From assembly GCF_003967195.1 (NCBI RefSeq), contig NZ_AP018725.1, forward strand, positions 2,232,001 through 2,296,000: a stretch of 64,000 nt of DNA, read 5' to 3'. This document shows positions 57,676 through 64,000 of this stretch, piece by piece; the stretch's first letter is position 1; every line of letters begins with the position of its first letter. The stretch comes from Sulfuriflexus mobilis (GTDB taxonomy: Bacteria > Pseudomonadota > Gammaproteobacteria > AKS1). The notes beneath the pieces were generated by a model that had not been told where the DNA came from, made no database searches, and saw nothing but the letters and a program-made list of their open reading frames with translations. Both the position numbers and the translations under genes were made by a program.

Positions 57676-58716
57676 CTATTTCCACAGGTCGACGGTCTTG
57701 CCGGTCGCGCGGATACGGCCGGCACGGTGCTCGATATAACGCTGGAAACTGCCCTCGGTCTTGTAACCACCCGATAACACATAGTCGAATACCGACTGCA
57801 CGTGGAAGGTCTTGAGGAAGGCCTCAATGCGGATGACCTCCTTGCCGCCATCAAACAGCACTACCGAGGGCGCATAGGCGATATTCAGTTTATCCGCCCA
57901 CTGCCTGGCCGTGGTCTTCTCCCCCGTCGGCGTCAGCAACGGGGTATCGGCATGGCGGTCGAGCTGGATGACGTGGAAACCGTTAATGACCGCCAGCGTG
58001 TCCGGGTCTTTCAGTGTGGTTTGATGCATCCGGTCGCATTCGCTACAGCCAGACTGCTCAAAAAACACGGCCACGGGTCTTTCGCCCTTACTCAGGCTCG
58101 CCAGGTCGTAAGGGGGGTTACTAAAGAACGCTTCGCTGTTGAGGGCCGCGTGGACCTTTGGTGTGGTGAACTGCTGATAATACTCCGCAAAAGTCATGCG
58201 GGTTTCGTGTTTCTCGGCGACATAACGCAACACGTGCATGAACTTCGCCGGGTCATAGTAGCCGTTAATGCGGAGGATGACCTTGCCCTGCTCGTTAAAA
58301 AACAGGATGGTCGGCGTAAACCAGACCTTGAGGCCGGCGGCATAGGTCTTTTCGTTATAGTCCTTGCCATCAAGGTCGACCACAGAACGGTCACCCCACA
58401 TGTTCATGTCGATAACATCGAAGTGTTGCTGGGTATAAGACACGACTTCCCGGCTCTGGGTGAAATTGTCATTCACCAGCTTGGCGCAGTAGGGACAGCC
58501 ATCCTGGTGGAAATACAGCATTAAGCGCTTGCCGGACTCGGTGGCCTCTTCGACGTCGGCCCTCACATCCAGAAAGGACTGTTTGAACCAGCTGGGCATA
58601 TCGACAAAGTGCGCGCCTTTAAACTCGCCACGTTTCGGCGCGGCGGCGGGGGCCTCTGCGGCGAAGACCGGCAGCCCCAGGGTCAGTATCACGATAAAGA
58701 CAAACAGGTTTCGCAT
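57676..58716 (-). CDS. Periplasmic protein with two thioredoxin-fold domains (SoxW-like)
   Basis: 346 aa from ATG 58716 with signal peptide (FVFIVILTLGLPVFAAE). First thioredoxin domain: LMLYFHQDGCPYCAKLV (CxxC) and a FTPTILFF cis-Pro. Second: VAVFFEQSGCSECDRMH (CxxC) and APSVVLFDGGKEV. Two active sites in tandem are unusual; this could be a disulfide relay or isomerase-type protein for sulfur or cytochrome metabolism. Nearby secreted genes (58794, 59480) may share the compartment. Confidence 0.88.
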   Translation of the reverse strand: MRNLFVFIVILTLGLPVFAAEAPAAAPKRGEFKGAHFVDMPSWFKQSFLDVRADVEEATESGKRLMLYFHQDGCPYCAKLVNDNFTQSREVVSYTQQHFDVIDMNMWGDRSVVDLDGKDYNEKTYAAGLKVWFTPTILFFNEQGKVILRINGYYDPAKFMHVLRYVAEKHETRMTFAEYYQQFTTPKVHAALNSEAFFSNPPYDLASLSKGERPVAVFFEQSGCSECDRMHQTTLKDPDTLAVINGFHVIQLDRHADTPLLTPTGEKTTARQWADKLNIAYAPSVVLFDGGKEVIRIEAFLKTFHVQSVFDYVLSGGYKTEGSFQRYIEHRAGRIRATGKTVDLWK

Positions 58717-58793
58717 TGTTTCGCCCTCGTCACGCGTTGTTGCAGAGTATGGCAGAGCCGACTGCCGACGCAAGGGGGTATCAATACCGATGC

Positions 58794-59402
58794 CTAGCGA
58801 GTCTCCTCCTCTGCCTCATGCATGACCTTATCCGCCTCATCCTTCATGTCCGGTATCACCTTGCAGGCCGGCGCATAACTCGCCGGCAGGTGTTCACGTA
58901 TCTCCGGCATACAGATGATATCCACCGTCACCAGGCCCGAGCACTTGGTAAACTGGATGGCCGTGCTGCCGTCATAGGCCACCATATATTTCCGTGGCCA
59001 ATTACCCGCCGGAGTCTCCAGCAGCAGGTGCTTGGCGTAGACATTCTTGTTGCCGGCGCGAAGTTTTTCCAGTTTGCCCAACGAGGCCTGTATATAGGAC
59101 ACCCCGCGTAAGGGGTCGGTCGCCCTGTCCCAGTTAAAAGGATAGTCCTTATTGTATTTACGGAACAGGCTTGCGCGGGTCTTGGAATCGGCACGACAGG
59201 ACTCCAGCAAGGTCCTCAATGCAGCGGAGACCTTGTCCTGCGTGGCCTCGTCGAGGCTGACCTTTTTCCCCTGGAGATAGATCATGGCCTCCGCCGGAGT
59301 CGCGCCGACCTCGTCGATGAGGTCAATCATATCGGCCAGGGAGGCCGCCGGGGGCAATAATGCCGCACACAGGCCCATGACTTGAAGAATTCTATATGCC
59401 AC
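58794..59402 (-). CDS. Exported hypothetical protein
   Basis: 202 aa. Signal peptide (VMGLCAALLPPAASLA). Mature part mixed helix/strand, with cysteines in LLESCRAD, FTKCSGLVTVDIICMPE and PACKVIPD, four in total, consistent with disulfides in the periplasm. Acidic end (MHEAEEETR). Family not recognised. Upstream of the two-thioredoxin protein on the same strand, a plausible substrate or partner. Confidence 0.72.
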   Translation of the reverse strand: MAYRILQVMGLCAALLPPAASLADMIDLIDEVGATPAEAMIYLQGKKVSLDEATQDKVSAALRTLLESCRADSKTRASLFRKYNKDYPFNWDRATDPLRGVSYIQASLGKLEKLRAGNKNVYAKHLLLETPAGNWPRKYMVAYDGSTAIQFTKCSGLVTVDIICMPEIREHLPASYAPACKVIPDMKDEADKVMHEAEEETR

Positions 59403-59479
59403 AGCAACTACCCTTAATGGCCCTGCTGGAATGAGGGCTTCCCTATCTATATCGTCAGATCGCCGGAATTATTTAATAT

Positions 59480-59917
59480 TCAGGGCCGCCAATAGCGGTA
59501 GCCCTCCATTTGCAGGCGGATCATCTCCACCGCACCGGCCGGGACAAACTCGACTTCAAGGGGAAAATCGTCGTCTACCAGCTCACTGGCACGCATGCTG
59601 ATACGACAGGCCTTGAATACCACACCACGGCGGTTCAGGGCCGCGAGCAGTCCGGCCGTTTGTTCATTATTTTTCAATAGCGATAATATCCCGCCCTCAT
59701 AGGCCACTACCTCAATGTGCACCTTGTCTTCGCCGATATCATCCAGCACCTTGGCAATCTGTAATAAGGCACGGCGATGCGAGAACCCCTCGCCGGAGCG
59801 CGTCAGCTGCATAACAAAGGGGACTGGCGCCGTCGTGTCGGCGGGTGCCGCCCAGAGGGTGTCGGAGACAAACATCGTCGGCATCACGATGACCAGCATA
59901 GCCAGAATTCTTTTCAT
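59480..59917 (-). CDS. Exported DsrE/DsrF-like protein
   Basis: 145 aa from ATG 59917 (MKRILAMLVIVMPTMF; an ATG at 59935 is in frame). Signal peptide, then a DsrE-type domain: VPFVMQLTRSGEGFSHRRALLQIAKVL, VHIEVVAYEGGILSLL, LNRRGVVFKACRISMR with the conserved-type cysteine. DsrE-family members carry sulfur or act in peroxide/sulfur relay; the secreted subgroup is poorly studied. Periplasmic. Confidence 0.82.
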   Translation of the reverse strand: MKRILAMLVIVMPTMFVSDTLWAAPADTTAPVPFVMQLTRSGEGFSHRRALLQIAKVLDDIGEDKVHIEVVAYEGGILSLLKNNEQTAGLLAALNRRGVVFKACRISMRASELVDDDFPLEVEFVPAGAVEMIRLQMEGYRYWRP

Positions 59918-60053
59918 AGACGGTGTCCTGCTCATTCAAGGTTGGGTATGACGGGCAATACGCAAAAAAACCACGGCATCAAGGCCTGACAGGCCATAGT
60001 GCACCAACCGTATCCATCTGGCCGTTTCAGGCCGGCACGCCCTCGTCGGCGGC

Positions 60054-60827
60054 TTAATAGTCCAGCCTGTAGTGCTTCCTTATTTTCTCCACCTCTGCCC
60101 GTTGCGCGTTAAGAAAACGGTTGAACAGCCTGATCAATTCCGGGTGGCGTGTCGAGGCCAGCAGGAAATCTCCACGGGTAGAGGGTACGGAGGTATCAAA
60201 CACCAGGGCACCGGGCCGCTTAAGCACCTCGCGCAAGATGTACTCACCCACCGAGCGTTCGACGTAGGCCGCATCACTGCGGCCATCAAGGGTTGCCCGC
60301 AGCACATCAGCAGTGGTGTCGAATGCCAGGAACTCGACAGTGCCGGCATTGCGTTGGGCCTCGTAGCCGGTGGGGGTAAAACCGCGCAGGATGGCAATAC
60401 GTTTCACCGCCACCAGGCCCGCACCACGCCGTTGCGGGCGCACCATCAGACCTTCGACATAGGTCACCACCGGCTGGCTATACGCCACACGGGCACCATG
60501 TTTCTGCCCAGTATGCCAGGCCGGATTGGCCGGGTACTTGAGATCGACTGTTCCGGATAGCAACGCATCGAACAGGCGGTTTACCGTCAGGCCCCGATAC
60601 TGCAGCGTCACACCGGCCCACCGGGAGAAGGCATCCAGCAGGTCCCGGCCATAGCCACTGTAACGGCCATCCAGATAGCGATAGTGGGGAAAGTAATCCT
60701 CATTCTCGACACCCACCACGTAGCCGGCCGGCTCATCATCCGCGCGGACACTCTGCCACGGCAGGCCAACAAACGTGAGGATAAACGCCACAAGCAGCCA
60801 GCGGTGTTTCACTGTATTCCACAGCAT
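60054..60827 (-). CDS. Periplasmic solute-binding protein (SBP_bac_3 type)
   Basis: 257 aa. Signal peptide (WLLVAFILTFVGLPWQSVRA). Type-2 binding-protein pattern: YVVGVENEDYFPHYRYLDGRYSGYGRDLLDAFSRWAGVTLQYR (strand/helix start), DLKYPANPAW, VKRIAILRGFTPTGYEA, DGRSDAAYVERSVGEYIL. No transporter genes accompany it; may be a sensory or amino-acid-scavenging protein. Starts 1 nt after the ferritin-like gene stop, so the two are one unit. Confidence 0.85.
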   Translation of the reverse strand: MLWNTVKHRWLLVAFILTFVGLPWQSVRADDEPAGYVVGVENEDYFPHYRYLDGRYSGYGRDLLDAFSRWAGVTLQYRGLTVNRLFDALLSGTVDLKYPANPAWHTGQKHGARVAYSQPVVTYVEGLMVRPQRRGAGLVAVKRIAILRGFTPTGYEAQRNAGTVEFLAFDTTADVLRATLDGRSDAAYVERSVGEYILREVLKRPGALVFDTSVPSTRGDFLLASTRHPELIRLFNRFLNAQRAEVEKIRKHYRLDY

Positions 60828-60828
60828 C

Positions 60829-61116
60829 TTATTTGTGCGCTATAGGTTTATCCGTGAAAAGATAGTCCTTTAACTCTTTATCCATAGCCGGGTCCTGTCG
60901 GCGTATCCACTCCAGAACCATGGCGGCATGTTCTTTTTCCTCGTCTCGGTTATGCGCGAGGATTGCCCTTAACTCAGCATCTTTACAGGCATCCACCCGC
61001 TGGTTGTACCAGTCGACGGCCTCCAGTTCTTCCATTAGGGATGTAATGGCGCGATGCATATCGCGTGTTGCATCAGTCAGCTCATCAATGGGTTCATGGT
61101 AACCTTCATTTGACAT
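60829..61116 (-). CDS. Encapsulin-associated ferritin-like protein (EncFtn family)
   Basis: 95 aa, almost colinear with the R. rubrum encapsulated ferritin: SLMEELEAVDWYNQRVDACKDAELRAILAHNRDEEKEHAAMVLEW. By alignment the ferroxidase ligands are Glu30, Glu60 and His63. Forms annular decamers that oxidise Fe(II) and in known systems hand it to an encapsulin shell. This copy ends DYLFTDKPIAHK with no encapsulin-targeting peptide and no shell gene nearby. Translationally coupled to the solute-binding protein. Confidence 0.9.
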   Translation of the reverse strand: MSNEGYHEPIDELTDATRDMHRAITSLMEELEAVDWYNQRVDACKDAELRAILAHNRDEEKEHAAMVLEWIRRQDPAMDKELKDYLFTDKPIAHK

Positions 61117-61206
61117 GGTTCTCTCCTGTAAATAACCTCATGGTGTCTACTTTTCCTCGCCAGACCAGTCATCTAACGATAACCGCTTGAGCGCCGGTTA
61201 GGGCCT

Positions 61207-61845
61207 TTATACCCTAAATTTTTCATAATTACCTGGCAACGCTGAATTTATCATTTCCCATGCGCCATTCTTAGTAACTTCGCAGGAATCGAACACAAAT
61301 GGAACCGGCGTCGCCCTGCGCAAGTCGTATTCTCGCATGAGTTGAAAGTGCAGATGAGGCTGGATGGTGTTACCCGAGTTGCCCACTTTGCCAATTAACT
61401 CGCCCGCCCTCACGCTCTGTCCTTCACTTACCGTCATACTTCCCTGCTGTAGATGTGCAAATACCGCGAGCACACCGTCTTCTGACTCTATCACGACGTA
61501 ATTACCCAAGAAATAGCCAACATCTTTGTTCCGGAGTCTTCTGGCCAGCACCAAACCCTTAACCAGGTCGTGTACCAGGTTCAGATAAATCCTGTCAGGG
61601 GCGGTATTTTCGGCTTTAAGCACAAGCCCGCTAAAGGGAGAAAACACCTCTTTGCCCCATGCATAGGTGTCTGTCACGCGTAGTTTATAAAACAGGTGTT
61701 GCAAGACCCTGAGGCGATTATATGGCGCACCCTGCGCATTCACGGCGACGAAGTCTTTTGCATCAGGATGGTGTCCGGGCGGGTTCATAAATGACCAGGT
61801 TCCCTTCACCGGGCTGTGAATTCTAACGGGGCGCATGCATGTCAC
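61207..61845 (-). CDS. M23-family (LytM) metallopeptidase domain protein
   Basis: 212 aa, no clear signal peptide. Central M23 fold: GYFLGNYVVIESEDGVLAVFAHLQQGSMTVSEGQSVRAGELIGKVGNSGNTIQPHLHFQLM; HLHFQ and the earlier FAHLQ give the zinc and catalytic histidines. M23 enzymes cut peptidoglycan cross-links; the lack of an export signal makes this odd. Some members are relatives that handle other substrates. No terminator recognised between it and the ferritin gene. Confidence 0.8.
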   Translation of the reverse strand: MTCMRPVRIHSPVKGTWSFMNPPGHHPDAKDFVAVNAQGAPYNRLRVLQHLFYKLRVTDTYAWGKEVFSPFSGLVLKAENTAPDRIYLNLVHDLVKGLVLARRLRNKDVGYFLGNYVVIESEDGVLAVFAHLQQGSMTVSEGQSVRAGELIGKVGNSGNTIQPHLHFQLMREYDLRRATPVPFVFDSCEVTKNGAWEMINSALPGNYEKFRV

Positions 61846-61908
61846 TATTCAGGCATCACTATTATACCAACAGGCAGGTGTTTTTCGCGCGTCTGACTGA
61901 GTCGCTCA

Positions 61909-62631
61909 TTAAACACCCAACAGTATATTATTGCCCAGCATTGCTACGCTAAATCCCAGCACAGCCCCTAAAGGTGGCGCCCAATGACGTTGCATACGCG
62001 ACTGGGGGGCAATATCCTGAAAAATTAAATACAGGATCCCGCCGGACGCAAACAACATTGTTGCACCCAGGAGCAGGACGTTATGACTAAAATATACCCA
62101 GCCGAGAATGGCGATAACCGGTCCTAATGGCACAAGCAATAACATAAAAACAAGGATTTGCCGACCGTTAAACTGTTGCGTAGAACGTAATTCACGGTAA
62201 GCATTAAATCCTTCAGGGATATTTTGTAACCCTATAAATAATGCTAGCAAGGGTGCGGATTGGGCGCCTATTGCGAAGGCACCACCTAAGGCCAATGACT
62301 CCGGCACATAATCCAACAGCATTGCAGTAAATTGTGGCTTTTCCCGACGCCGCGTCCCCAGGAAACGTTCCAGGGCAAAAAAACAAAGCCCCCCAGAGAG
62401 CAAAAAGATCACACTTAATACAGCGTGATCGACATATTCAATACCCTCCGGCACAAGCACCAAAGCGACGGCGGCAACTAAAATACCGCCGCCAAAAGCG
62501 ATAATAGAATGCCGAAACTCATTTTCCAGCCACCCGGGGCGAATCCGTTCAATCTTCGCAAGCATTCCCCCCAGCGGAATGCATGCGCCTGCACCCAGGG
62601 TATACAGAATTATTTTTATCACATCATCCAT
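61909..62631 (-). CDS. ZIP-family metal transporter
   Basis: 240 aa, about eight hydrophobic helices. Metal-site helix LLDYVPESLALGGAFAIGAQSAPLLALFIGLQNIPEGFNAYREL carries the paired PES/IPEG motif of ZIP proteins. Expected to import zinc or iron. It lies directly after the last attC-like site of the cassette array, on the same strand as the cassettes; it may be the first chromosomal gene or a cassette that has lost its attC. Confidence 0.9.
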   Translation of the reverse strand: MDDVIKIILYTLGAGACIPLGGMLAKIERIRPGWLENEFRHSIIAFGGGILVAAVALVLVPEGIEYVDHAVLSVIFLLSGGLCFFALERFLGTRRREKPQFTAMLLDYVPESLALGGAFAIGAQSAPLLALFIGLQNIPEGFNAYRELRSTQQFNGRQILVFMLLLVPLGPVIAILGWVYFSHNVLLLGATMLFASGGILYLIFQDIAPQSRMQRHWAPPLGAVLGFSVAMLGNNILLGV

Positions 62632-62651
62632 TTTTCGTGGGTAGGTCGGGT

Positions 62652-62742
62652 ATATAACGGCTAGGCTGAGGGTTTTGTTACTGCAGAGTGTCGCGCAGCG
62701 GAACGACGCGGTAACAAGTCCCTCTCTAGCCTTTTGTTAGGC
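62652..62742 (-). other. Putative integron attC site 1 (after GyrI-like cassette)
   Basis: On the minus strand the site starts GCCTAAC (R'') at 62742, 24 nt after the cassette stop, and ends GTTATAT (R') at 62652. Total 91 bp. Long imperfect palindrome: AACAAAAGGCTAGAGAGGG / CCCTCAGCCTAGCCGTTAT and inner TTGTTAC / GTAACAA. These are the length, ends and fold of attC recombination sites. Confidence 0.75.
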
Positions 62743-62765
62743 GAGGGCATATTTCAATTTTCTTT

Positions 62766-63233
62766 CTATCGACCAGTCTTGATTGGCAGAAAGATCTTGG
62801 TTTCTAATTTTTCTGGCGGTGTTTGATCTGGATCGTTCAAATACATTTCGTATGCTACCCCAGTTGCCTCATAGCCACTATCTTTAATCCATTTGAAAAG
62901 CGCATTGTATGTAGATTCTACGTCACTATATGGACCAATATGAAGACAGGATACTGATTTCCCGCTTGGTGTTTCATTAGAGTGTATGTTGTCTCTTCCC
63001 GTAAGATTCGTGGAAATAGGAAAGCCAAATTCCACATCTAAGTCTTGCATATCCATATTGTAATATATAGCAAATGGAGGTCCTGCAGGCTGCGCCTGAA
63101 CTTCCCCTAGATACTGAGCTATCTCGCCATACCCTTTGCCAAAAATCTGCGGCAAATCTTCTGCGGCAGCTCTCATACGAATTGACAATGCAGGCTGGGG
63201 GGCAAGTTCCACAAGTTCACATCTAAATGACAT
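62766..63233 (-). CDS. GyrI-like small-molecule-binding protein (cassette gene)
   Basis: 155 aa from ATG 63233 (MSFRCELVELAPQPALSIRM), preceded by AAAGGAGGAAAG, a strong Shine-Dalgarno. GyrI/AraC effector-binding fold: VSCLHIGPYSDVESTYNALFKWI and the closing AYEMYLNDPDQTPPEKLETKIFLPI. Free-standing GyrI-like domains bind amphipathic small molecules and can protect gyrase; function here unknown. Between attC-like sites, a typical cassette product. Confidence 0.88.
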   Translation of the reverse strand: MSFRCELVELAPQPALSIRMRAAAEDLPQIFGKGYGEIAQYLGEVQAQPAGPPFAIYYNMDMQDLDVEFGFPISTNLTGRDNIHSNETPSGKSVSCLHIGPYSDVESTYNALFKWIKDSGYEATGVAYEMYLNDPDQTPPEKLETKIFLPIKTGR

Positions 63234-63274
63234 TTTCTTTCCTCCTTTATAACTACTCTCTTTGAGTGTTATTC

Positions 63275-63376
63275 GCCTAACGGTTGAGTTAAATAGCAAT
63301 TAACTGTGAGCAAAGCGAGCGGTTAACTGTCCAAGTTGCGCGTTTTTTGCGCAGCGGTTTAAGTGACTTGTTATGT
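63275..63376 (-). other. Putative integron attC site 2 (after GNAT cassette)
   Basis: Minus strand begins ACATAAC (63376) and ends GTTAGGC (63275), 102 bp. The TAA stop of the GNAT gene lies inside the first box. Inner inverted segments (GCGCAAAAAACGCGC; AGTTAACCG...; TTAACTCAACCG) give a fold-back. Confidence 0.75.
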
Positions 63377-63802
63377 GTTAATTGCGCCATAATTAAATTT
63401 ATAAGGACTATCCTTTTTGAACCCCATTTTTTCATAAAAACCTGATGCGCTAGTATTTTCGTTAGCTACTAGCCAAGCCCTGGCATTTTTTCCGTTACCC
63501 GCACTATTTAATAATGGTTTAGCAATGCCTTTATTTCTATGTTTTATTGAAACAAATAGCTCTTGAATATATACCAATGTTTCAGATTGCCAAGGATATG
63601 AATATGAAAATATTGCACCAACTATTTCATTATTGATAATTGCCACGAAACAACCAGATGGCTCTATTTCATAAAATCTTTTGATATAATTGTATGCATC
63701 AGCATGCTTCCAGTTTTCTTCATACTCTGGTTCAGCATAAACTTGTGTTAACAAGGATGCACAAGTTTTTATATGTTCTGTTAAGCAAGGCACTATGTTC
63801 AT
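63371..63802 (-). CDS. GNAT-family N-acetyltransferase (cassette gene)
   Basis: 143 aa from ATG 63802 (MNIVPCLTEHIKTCASLLTQVY; a further ATG at 63820 overlaps the attC end). GNAT fold: GCFVAIINNEIVGAIFSY, VYIQELFVSIKHRNKGIAKPLLN (acetyl-CoA loop, with KHRNKGI for the Q/RxxGxG/A motif), and ANENTSASGFYEKMGFKKDS. Strongly AT-rich compared with the window. Substrate unknown; GNATs of this kind are common cassette cargo. Its stop is inside attC 2. Confidence 0.88.
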   Translation of the reverse strand: MNIVPCLTEHIKTCASLLTQVYAEPEYEENWKHADAYNYIKRFYEIEPSGCFVAIINNEIVGAIFSYSYPWQSETLVYIQELFVSIKHRNKGIAKPLLNSAGNGKNARAWLVANENTSASGFYEKMGFKKDSPYKFNYGAINT

Positions 63803-63816
63803 GTTTTTATTTTTAC

Positions 63817-63879
63817 ACATAACGTTTTAGTTAAAAGGCGCGACGCTTTATCGCGTCATTTTTGAAAGACCTGTTAGCT
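63817..63879 (-). other. Putative integron attC site 3
   Basis: Minus strand begins AGCTAAC (63879) and ends GTTATGT (63817), 63 bp with an inner GACGC gataaa GCGTC hairpin. The TAA stop of the small upstream ORF lies inside the first box. Weaker palindrome than sites 1 and 2. Confidence 0.6.
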
Positions 63880-63999
63880 GTTTTTTGTATTATCATATGG
63901 GAACTTAGTGTGACCATATCTAATTGCAAGTATAGATATAGCAAGAATTAGCACAGCACCAGTGAGACCAAGCACTCTTAATGTATCTAAGTTCTTCAT
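63874..63999 (-). CDS. Small membrane peptide (cassette gene, possibly 5'-truncated)
   Basis: 41 codons from the ATG at 63999: MKNLDTLRVLGLTGAVLILA, then a hydrophobic helix continuing to ILAIRYGH and a short polar end NTKNS. One transmembrane segment. AT-rich. The ORF may begin beyond the window edge. Stop codon inside attC 3. No homolog recognised. Confidence 0.55.
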   Translation of the reverse strand: MKNLDTLRVLGLTGAVLILAISILAIRYGHTKFPYDNTKNS

Positions 64000-64000
64000 A

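What the first reader, a model, noticed from the sequence alone, without database searches (positions are those of the whole stretch)
60054..61116. EncFtn-type ferritin without encapsulin shell or targeting peptide, coupled to a periplasmic binding protein
The 95-aa protein keeps the ferroxidase residues of encapsulated ferritins but lacks the C-terminal extension and targeting peptide, and no encapsulin gene is nearby. Its downstream partner, 1 nt away, is a secreted SBP. This suggests a free-standing ferroxidase or an unusual iron-handling pair, or a shell encoded elsewhere.
Basis: partly seen in the sequence, partly recalled or inferred. Interest (0 to 1): 0.65.

Follow-up and report, generated by a model that had tools for sequence, protein, structure and literature searches.

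The report
Shell-less encapsulin-type ferritin, chance neighbour
The gene encodes a small iron-oxidising ferritin of a known type that usually works inside a protein shell but here has none; its pairing with a secreted binding protein is a local accident beside a mobile gene array, while across related bacteria the same ferritin is instead tied to a peroxide-defence gene cluster.

Summary
The 95-aa ORF at 60829-61116(-) is an EncFtn-type ferritin with all ferroxidase residues, no targeting peptide, and a signal-bearing SBP_bac_3 gene 1 nt downstream. It belongs to a known class, the "s-FLP" of Nitrosomonas europaea NE0167 (PDB 3k6c, about 83% identical). The single-contig genome has no Family 1 encapsulin.

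The proposed ferritin-SBP pair is not supported. No SBP homologue lies beside any of the 80 nearest homologues or in three congeners. The ferritin sits at the distal edge of a chromosomal integron (IntI 7 kb away; five cassettes with perfect R'/R'' matches), abutting an unrelated gene.

A 274-genome survey of the class adds something. EncFtns not linked to a shell gene occur in 66 genomes, 62 of them without encapsulin; all 14 encapsulin genomes have a separate EncFtn beside the shell gene. The unlinked forms mostly end in a His-bearing tail (145/155 against 0/14). They co-occur with the "aerobic-type" rubrerythrin/RFO/DUF3501 cluster and lie in or beside it in 19 genomes (17 families). The window genome carries that cluster 67 kb away.

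Best reading: a free-standing cytosolic ferroxidase serving iron/peroxide defence. The class is known; the context and tail signature I found undescribed.

The parts
60829..61116 (-). s-FLP: short EncFtn-type ferritin-like protein, 95 aa, no signal peptide, no targeting peptide, C-terminal KPIAHK
   Evidence: Pfam PF22277 6e-45; TIGR04535; PDB 3k6c phmmer E 8.8e-48; AF2 model pLDDT 88.7, Foldseek to 3k6c TM 0.85-0.88
60054..60827 (-). Orphan SBP_bac_3 solute-binding protein with N-terminal signal sequence; adjacency to the ferritin judged incidental
   Evidence: Pfam PF00497 1.6e-8; closest PDB 3h7m sensor domain; not near any other s-FLP; absent from three congeners; GC3 0.68 against 0.51 for the ferritin
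61168..61206 (-). Degenerate attC-like remnant (CCCTAACCGGCGCTCAAGCGGTTATCGTTAGATG): distal end of the integron cassette array, immediately upstream of the ferritin
   Evidence: Sequence read, resembles the start of the o259 attC (CCTAACAAGGCGCTCAAGCAGG); no fold signal, z about 0
61207..61845 (-). M23 peptidase gene, last gene of the array (true start probably downstream of the listed GTG)
   Evidence: PF01551 1.9e-18; GC3 0.55
61909..62631 (-). ZIP-like metal transporter gene in the array
   Evidence: PF02535 4e-8, 33.3 bits, just under its cut-off of 35.1
62632..62765 (-). attC site between the GyrI-like and ZIP genes
   Evidence: R' GTTAGGCG before and R'' CGCCTAAC after the GyrI gene match 8/8; folds with z -2.8
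62766..63299 (-). GyrI-like domain protein, integron cassette
   Evidence: PF06445 2e-26; 8/8 R'/R'' boundary match
63300..63370 (-). attC site between the GNAT and GyrI-like genes
   Evidence: 8/8 boundary match for GNAT: GTTATGTG before, CACATAAC after
63371..63820 (-). GNAT acetyltransferase, integron cassette, GC3 0.23
   Evidence: PF00583 7e-14; 8/8 boundary match; GC3

Best explanation
The gene makes a free-standing, cytosolic EncFtn ferroxidase of the known s-FLP class. Shown: the fold, the complete ferroxidase centre, the absence of a targeting peptide and of a Family 1 shell, and the lack of a conserved link to the SBP. Inferred: by homology to NE0167 and R. rubrum EncFtn it forms a metal-stabilised ring of ten with a di-iron centre at each dimer interface, and oxidises Fe(II) with oxygen. 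It cannot store iron itself, so it most likely acts as a fast Fe(II) sink during oxidative stress, together with the rubrerythrin-type peroxidase system (RBR, the Fe-S oxidoreductase RFO, and DUF3501), and passes iron on to the bacterioferritin-like protein of the genome or, in congeners, works next to the FetAB iron exporter. The His-bearing tail that stands where the targeting peptide would be may bind metal or dock a partner. The SBP beside it is unrelated: the ferritin lies at the edge of a chromosomal integron array.
For: Class and fold. Ferroxidase residues E30, Y37, E60, H63 are 100% conserved in 155 unlinked homologues. No encapsulin in the genome. In 274 genomes of the class, 66 have an unlinked EncFtn, 62 of them without encapsulin; presence of the unlinked form is independent of the shell (odds ratio 1.3, p 0.75). 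Linked EncFtns carry tails of 21-41 aa; unlinked ones 0-12 aa with one exception of 29 aa. His within the last six residues: 145/155 unlinked, 0/14 linked. Unlinked EncFtn co-occurs with DUF3501 in 47/66 genomes against 72/208 of the others (p 2e-7) and lies within 2.5 kb of it in 19 genomes of 17 families, typically in the order RBR-RFO-sFLP-DUF3501 with gaps of a few bases or 4-nt overlaps. The window genome has RBR-RFO-DUF3501 at 2225690-2228134, 67 kb away, and a bacterioferritin-like gene. Two congeners have FetA-FetB directly upstream of the s-FLP. Isolated EncFtn is an active ferroxidase but precipitates iron without its shell (PMC5012862).
Against: No biochemistry exists for any s-FLP in the papers I could find. 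In most s-FLP loci the gene stands alone, and in the window itself it is not in the rubrerythrin cluster. R. rubrum EncFtn showed no peroxidase activity, so the link to peroxide defence can only be through iron removal. Co-occurrence counts are not corrected for phylogeny beyond counting families. Encapsulin families other than 1 and SrpI-like 2A were not searched, and the 2A search had no control that rang. Handing iron to the bacterioferritin is a guess.
Confidence: 0.6

Rival explanations
1. Ferritin and SBP form a dedicated iron-handling operon: the SBP captures a ligand in the periplasm and the ferritin handles the imported iron.
For: Stop and start codons are 1 nt apart on one strand, so co-transcription is likely.
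Against: No SBP homologue beside any of the 80 nearest s-FLPs; none in three congeners, and only 21-27% identical matches in 56 genomes. The SBP is of the amino-acid-type family 3, no permease or ATPase gene is adjacent, the Shine-Dalgarno is weak, and codon GC3 jumps from 0.51 to 0.68 exactly at the junction.
Confidence: 0.04
2. The s-FLP is cargo of an encapsulin (or another shell) that it enters through a short, unrecognised C-terminal motif such as KPIAH.
For: The 2024 review leaves this open because the decamer resembles encapsulated ones and the tail is disordered (PMC11202242). The C-terminal motif is strongly conserved (H94 in 85%). Four surveyed genomes have both an unlinked EncFtn and an encapsulin.
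Against: 62 of 66 genomes with an unlinked EncFtn have no Family 1 encapsulin at all, and in the four that do, a second EncFtn with the usual linkage accompanies the shell. The window genome is a single contig estimated 100% complete.
Confidence: 0.07
3. The s-FLP is itself an integron gene cassette, a mobile stress gene captured and shuffled by IntI.
For: It directly follows an attC-like remnant ending in GTTAGATG and has the lower GC3 of the array side. IntI is confirmed (TIGR02249, 421 bits), and five genes of the array have perfect cassette boundaries.
Against: No attC follows the ferritin; its best boundary match is 5/8, the level of the null. None of the other s-FLP loci shows a credible attC.
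Confidence: 0.15
4. The s-FLP is a vestigial protein left over after loss of encapsulin.
For: It lacks shell and tail, and tail-less forms seem to have arisen more than once (three label changes on a weakly resolved tree).
Against: Ferroxidase residues 100% conserved in 155 sequences and strong purifying selection; a conserved His tail and retained operon links.
Confidence: 0.02

Closest known systems
s-FLP class, NE0167 of Nitrosomonas europaea (PDB 3k6c)
   Same: Length 95 aa, no targeting peptide, same C-terminal YLFT(D/N)KPIAH, about 83% identity over 90 residues, same fold; ten chains in the crystal entry.
   Different: Different genome context; nothing else found. The window protein is a new member, not a new class.
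Encapsulated ferritin EncFtn (R. rubrum Rru_A0973, H. ochraceum; FLP-TP class)
   Same: Same fold (TM 0.86), same ferroxidase, entry and exit residues.
   Different: No 21-41 aa tail with (I/V)G(S/N/D/P)L(K)-type targeting peptide and no adjacent encapsulin; has a His-bearing tail and usually C44 instead.
Aerobic-type rubrerythrin cluster RBR-RFO-DUF3501 (PMC5114695)
   Same: In 19 of 66 surveyed genomes the s-FLP lies in or beside this cluster, often between RFO and DUF3501.
   Different: The s-FLP is not described as a part of the cluster in that paper (no encapsulin-type ferritin is mentioned); in the window genome the cluster is intact without it, 67 kb away.
Dps and bacterioferritin
   Same: Ferroxidase chemistry in the cytosol, iron detoxification.
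   Different: Those form closed storage cages; EncFtn-type rings have no storage cavity (PMC5012862). The genome has a separate bacterioferritin-like gene.

Membership tests
EncFtn-like ferritin (PF22277 / TIGR04535) | Sequence above the curated cut-off | tested here: met
   151.4 against 27 bits; 136.5 against 125 bits
EncFtn-like ferritin (PF22277 / TIGR04535) | Ferroxidase residues E32, Y39, E62, H65 (R. rubrum numbering) | tested here: met
   E30, Y37, E60, H63 present, 100% conserved in 155 homologues
EncFtn-like ferritin (PF22277 / TIGR04535) | Two-helix protomer forming a D5 decamer | tested here: inconclusive
   Monomer fold met. The decamer is inferred from the close homologue 3k6c; no oligomer was modelled
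s-FLP class (NE0167 type) | About 95 aa, no disordered extension, no apparent targeting peptide | tested here: met
   95 aa; no TP-like motif in it or in any of the 154 unlinked homologues scanned
Encapsulin cargo (FLP-TP) | C-terminal targeting peptide | tested here: not met
   Absent
Encapsulin cargo (FLP-TP) | Encapsulin shell gene in the genome | tested here: not met
   No PF04454 match in 3.11 Mb, controls ring; SrpI-like PF19307 also absent but without a positive control
Ferritin-SBP functional pair | Conserved adjacency in relatives | tested here: not met
   0 of 80 loci; SBP absent from three congeners
RBR-RFO-DUF3501 cluster component | Located in the cluster | tested here: not met
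   In the window genome 67 kb away; in 19 other genomes it is within 2.5 kb of DUF3501
RBR-RFO-DUF3501 cluster component | Functional participation in peroxide defence | not testable with these tools
   Needs deletion and assay
Integron gene cassette | attC site 3' of the ORF with R'' matching the R' before it | tested here: not met
   Best match 5/8, as in the null; SBP starts 1 nt after the stop
Integron (the neighbouring array) | Integron integrase divergent from an array of attC-flanked ORFs | tested here: met
   TIGR02249 421 bits against 265; five cassettes with 8/8 R'/R'' match, 0 of 300 in the null; a degenerate set of attC elsewhere in the array

The most novel reading that the evidence does not exclude
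Shell-less EncFtn rings are a separate, widespread iron-detoxification branch in which the targeting peptide has been replaced by a His-bearing docking or metal-transfer tail, and they act as the Fe(II)-removing partner of the aerobic-type rubrerythrin/RFO/DUF3501 peroxide-defence system, which would give DUF3501 and RFO a functional context.
Probability: 0.35. Interest if true: 0.65.

Novelty: new member of a known kind. Interest (0 to 1): 0.4.

Why it matters
A 2024 review (PMC11202242) left open whether short EncFtns are encapsulated. The survey here answers it at the genomic level: their distribution is independent of encapsulin genes, and shell-linked EncFtns are distinct genes with long tails. 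It also gives a testable context, the aerobic-type rubrerythrin cluster and FetAB, for a class with a crystal structure but no reported function, and a tail signature that separates shell-less from shelled forms. For this locus it shows that an attractive-looking operon is an accident at an integron edge.

Tried and rejected
SBP pairing: rejected by 80 loci and by congeners. A conserved neighbour among the 80 nearest loci alone: none was visible; the rubrerythrin cluster only appeared once the even class survey was added. Fur box upstream of s-FLPs: best matches are only slightly above shuffled sequence, 11/19 in the window, and enriched 7-mers look like coding bias, so I draw nothing from it. 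s-FLP as an integron cassette: boundary test fails, and only one weak attC-like hit among 161 loci, which lies mostly in coding sequence. Family 2A encapsulin search: negative but uninformative, as nothing rang in the controls. Tree of short and tailed EncFtns: too few columns to resolve the number of origins.

Full report
Observation. The first is an EncFtn-like ferritin (PF22277 6e-45; TIGR04535 above cut-off) and the second a family 3 solute-binding protein with a signal sequence. All residues that PMC5012862 assigns to the ferroxidase centre, the iron entry site and the exit site are present. There is no tail and no targeting peptide. The window lies at 2232001-2296000 of a single-contig 3.11 Mb genome rated 100% complete, in which no Family 1 encapsulin was found.

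What it is. The closest solved protein is NE0167 of Nitrosomonas europaea (3k6c), also 95 aa. An AlphaFold2 model from 26 homologues (pLDDT 88.7) matches it with TM 0.85-0.88 and 83% identity, and R. rubrum EncFtn with TM 0.86. The 2024 review PMC11202242 calls this class s-FLP, notes that it was first classified as non-encapsulated, and leaves open whether it is encapsulated after all. So the class is known, and the window protein is a member of it.

The SBP is a chance neighbour. None of the 80 nearest homologue loci has an SBP of this kind nearby. Three congeners lack it; two of them have an s-FLP, and there the gene follows a FetA-FetB pair (PF03649 and ABC ATPase; best NCBIfam models are the iron-efflux FetB and FetA, below their equivalog cut-offs) and precedes a DUF4124 protein. 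In the s-FLP of the congener G274 the gene is split over two contig ends, so its context was read from both pieces.

Why it sits there. Codon GC3 falls from about 0.7 in the SBP and the genes beyond it to 0.51 in the ferritin, 0.55, 0.46, 0.35 and 0.23 in the next genes upstream. The low-GC stretch ends about 7 kb beyond the ferritin at an integron integrase (TIGR02249, 421 bits, cut-off 265) that is divergent from the leftward genes. Between these genes lie attC-type sites. The hallmark of cassettes, an R'' after each gene that is the reverse complement of the R' before it, holds 8/8 for five genes (o108, o99, o132, GNAT, GyrI-like) and in none of 300 random controls. An IS3 element interrupts one attC. 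The last attC, after the M23 gene, is a short remnant directly upstream of the ferritin. The ferritin has no attC of its own. It is therefore either chromosomal sequence at the end of the array or a terminal cassette that has lost its attC; in both cases its contact with the SBP is a junction. Two of seven attC candidates fold significantly better than shuffled sequence and the others do not, so the integron rests on IntI and on the boundary test, not on folding.

Shell or no shell. In an even sample of 274 genomes of the class, 76 have a full-length EncFtn domain and 14 have a Family 1 encapsulin. Each of the 14 has an EncFtn right beside the shell gene. Unlinked EncFtns occur in 66 genomes, 62 of them without encapsulin; the two are statistically independent. 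Linked EncFtns have tails of 21-41 aa past the domain, nearly all ending in an (I/V)G(S/N/D/P)L-type targeting peptide; one linked copy, in G196, reads as one open frame with the encapsulin. Unlinked ones have tails of 0-12 aa, except one of 29 aa without a targeting peptide. In the phylum sample, EncFtns in genomes without encapsulin also lack the tail. This argues at the genomic level that s-FLPs work without a shell.

A tail signature. Of 155 distinct unlinked sequences, 145 have a His within the last six residues, against 0 of 14 linked ones. Several distant tail-less sequences that fall among the shelled forms in the tree (L147, L149, L150, L151, L211) also end in a His-bearing tail. The cysteine at position 44 is present in 94% of unlinked and 35% of linked sequences. 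In R. rubrum EncFtn the C-terminus projects from the outer rim of the ring (PMC5012862), so ten His-bearing tails would ring the decamer. What they do is unknown. The unlinked set includes the 80 nearest homologues and is not an unbiased sample; in the survey part alone the count is 66 of 75.

A conserved context. In 23 of 156 distinct unlinked loci (partly limited by short flanks) a gene of the aerobic-type rubrerythrin cluster lies in reach, most often in the order RBR, RFO, s-FLP, DUF3501 with gaps of a few bases or 4-nt overlaps. In the class survey DUF3501 is present in 47 of 66 genomes with an unlinked EncFtn against 72 of 208 without (p 2e-7), and within 2.5 kb in 19 genomes of 17 families. 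PMC5114695 describes RBR, RFO and DUF3501 as a co-localised set of the oxidative stress response and does not mention an encapsulin-type ferritin. A relative of this rubrerythrin from Hydrogenobacter is a peroxidase essential for aerobic growth (PMC3317640). The window genome has RBR, RFO and DUF3501 intact at 2225690-2228134, with 17 nt between RFO and DUF3501, 67 kb from the ferritin.

Mechanism. Isolated R. rubrum EncFtn oxidises Fe(II) but precipitates iron and aggregates without its shell, and shows no peroxidase activity (PMC5012862). A shell-less form must therefore either work at low iron load or hand Fe(III) on. The genome has a bacterioferritin-like protein, and the congeners have FetAB beside the ferritin. 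The most economical reading is a cytosolic Fe(II) sink that lowers Fenton chemistry while the rubrerythrin system removes peroxide. The fold, the residues, the lack of a shell and the genomic associations are shown; activity, oligomer, partner and hand-over are inferred.

Limits. Counts are per genome and were corrected for relatedness only by counting families. Sets for one search were copied from the output. Only Family 1 encapsulins were searched with a working control. A plasmid absent from the assembly cannot be excluded.

Noticed in passing
window 61168-64000 and on to G000:C1:2301036 (locus L225): A chromosomal integron: IntI at 2300047-2301036(+) divergent from an array of small low-GC genes (unknown proteins, OmdA-like, PsiE-like, GNAT, GyrI-like, ZIP-like, M23), five with perfect cassette boundaries, one attC split by an IS3 element.
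   Followed up: partly
L215:10012-11728 and L216/L217 (congeners): FetA-FetB-like iron-exporter genes directly upstream of the s-FLP and a DUF4124 gene downstream.
   Followed up: partly
L175, L094, L109, L104, L189, L195, L199, L200 and others: s-FLP inserted between RFO and DUF3501 of the aerobic-type rubrerythrin cluster, often with 4-nt gene overlaps.
   Followed up: yes
L214 (G196:C227): An EncFtn and an encapsulin in one continuous 492-aa open frame in a genome of the same class; possibly a fusion like the archaeal type, or a frameshift.
   Followed up: no
L192 (G074): An unlinked EncFtn with a 29-aa Lys/Pro/Ala-rich tail without targeting peptide, in a genome without encapsulin.
   Followed up: no
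L152-L155 (G336, G316, G385, G535): Divergent 104-aa EncFtn-like proteins (about 85 bits) with tails of 11 aa; two of these genomes also have an encapsulin at a distant place.
   Followed up: no
window 57676-59935: High-GC3 leftward genes after the SBP: DsrE-like protein, a 202-aa protein without Pfam match, and a two-domain thioredoxin-like protein, all with apparent export signals; possibly a periplasmic sulfur or thiol system.
   Followed up: no
L219:3254-3703 (G000:C1 about 521 kb): A 149-aa bacterioferritin-like protein below the NCBIfam bacterioferritin cut-off (75 against 126 bits).
   Followed up: partly
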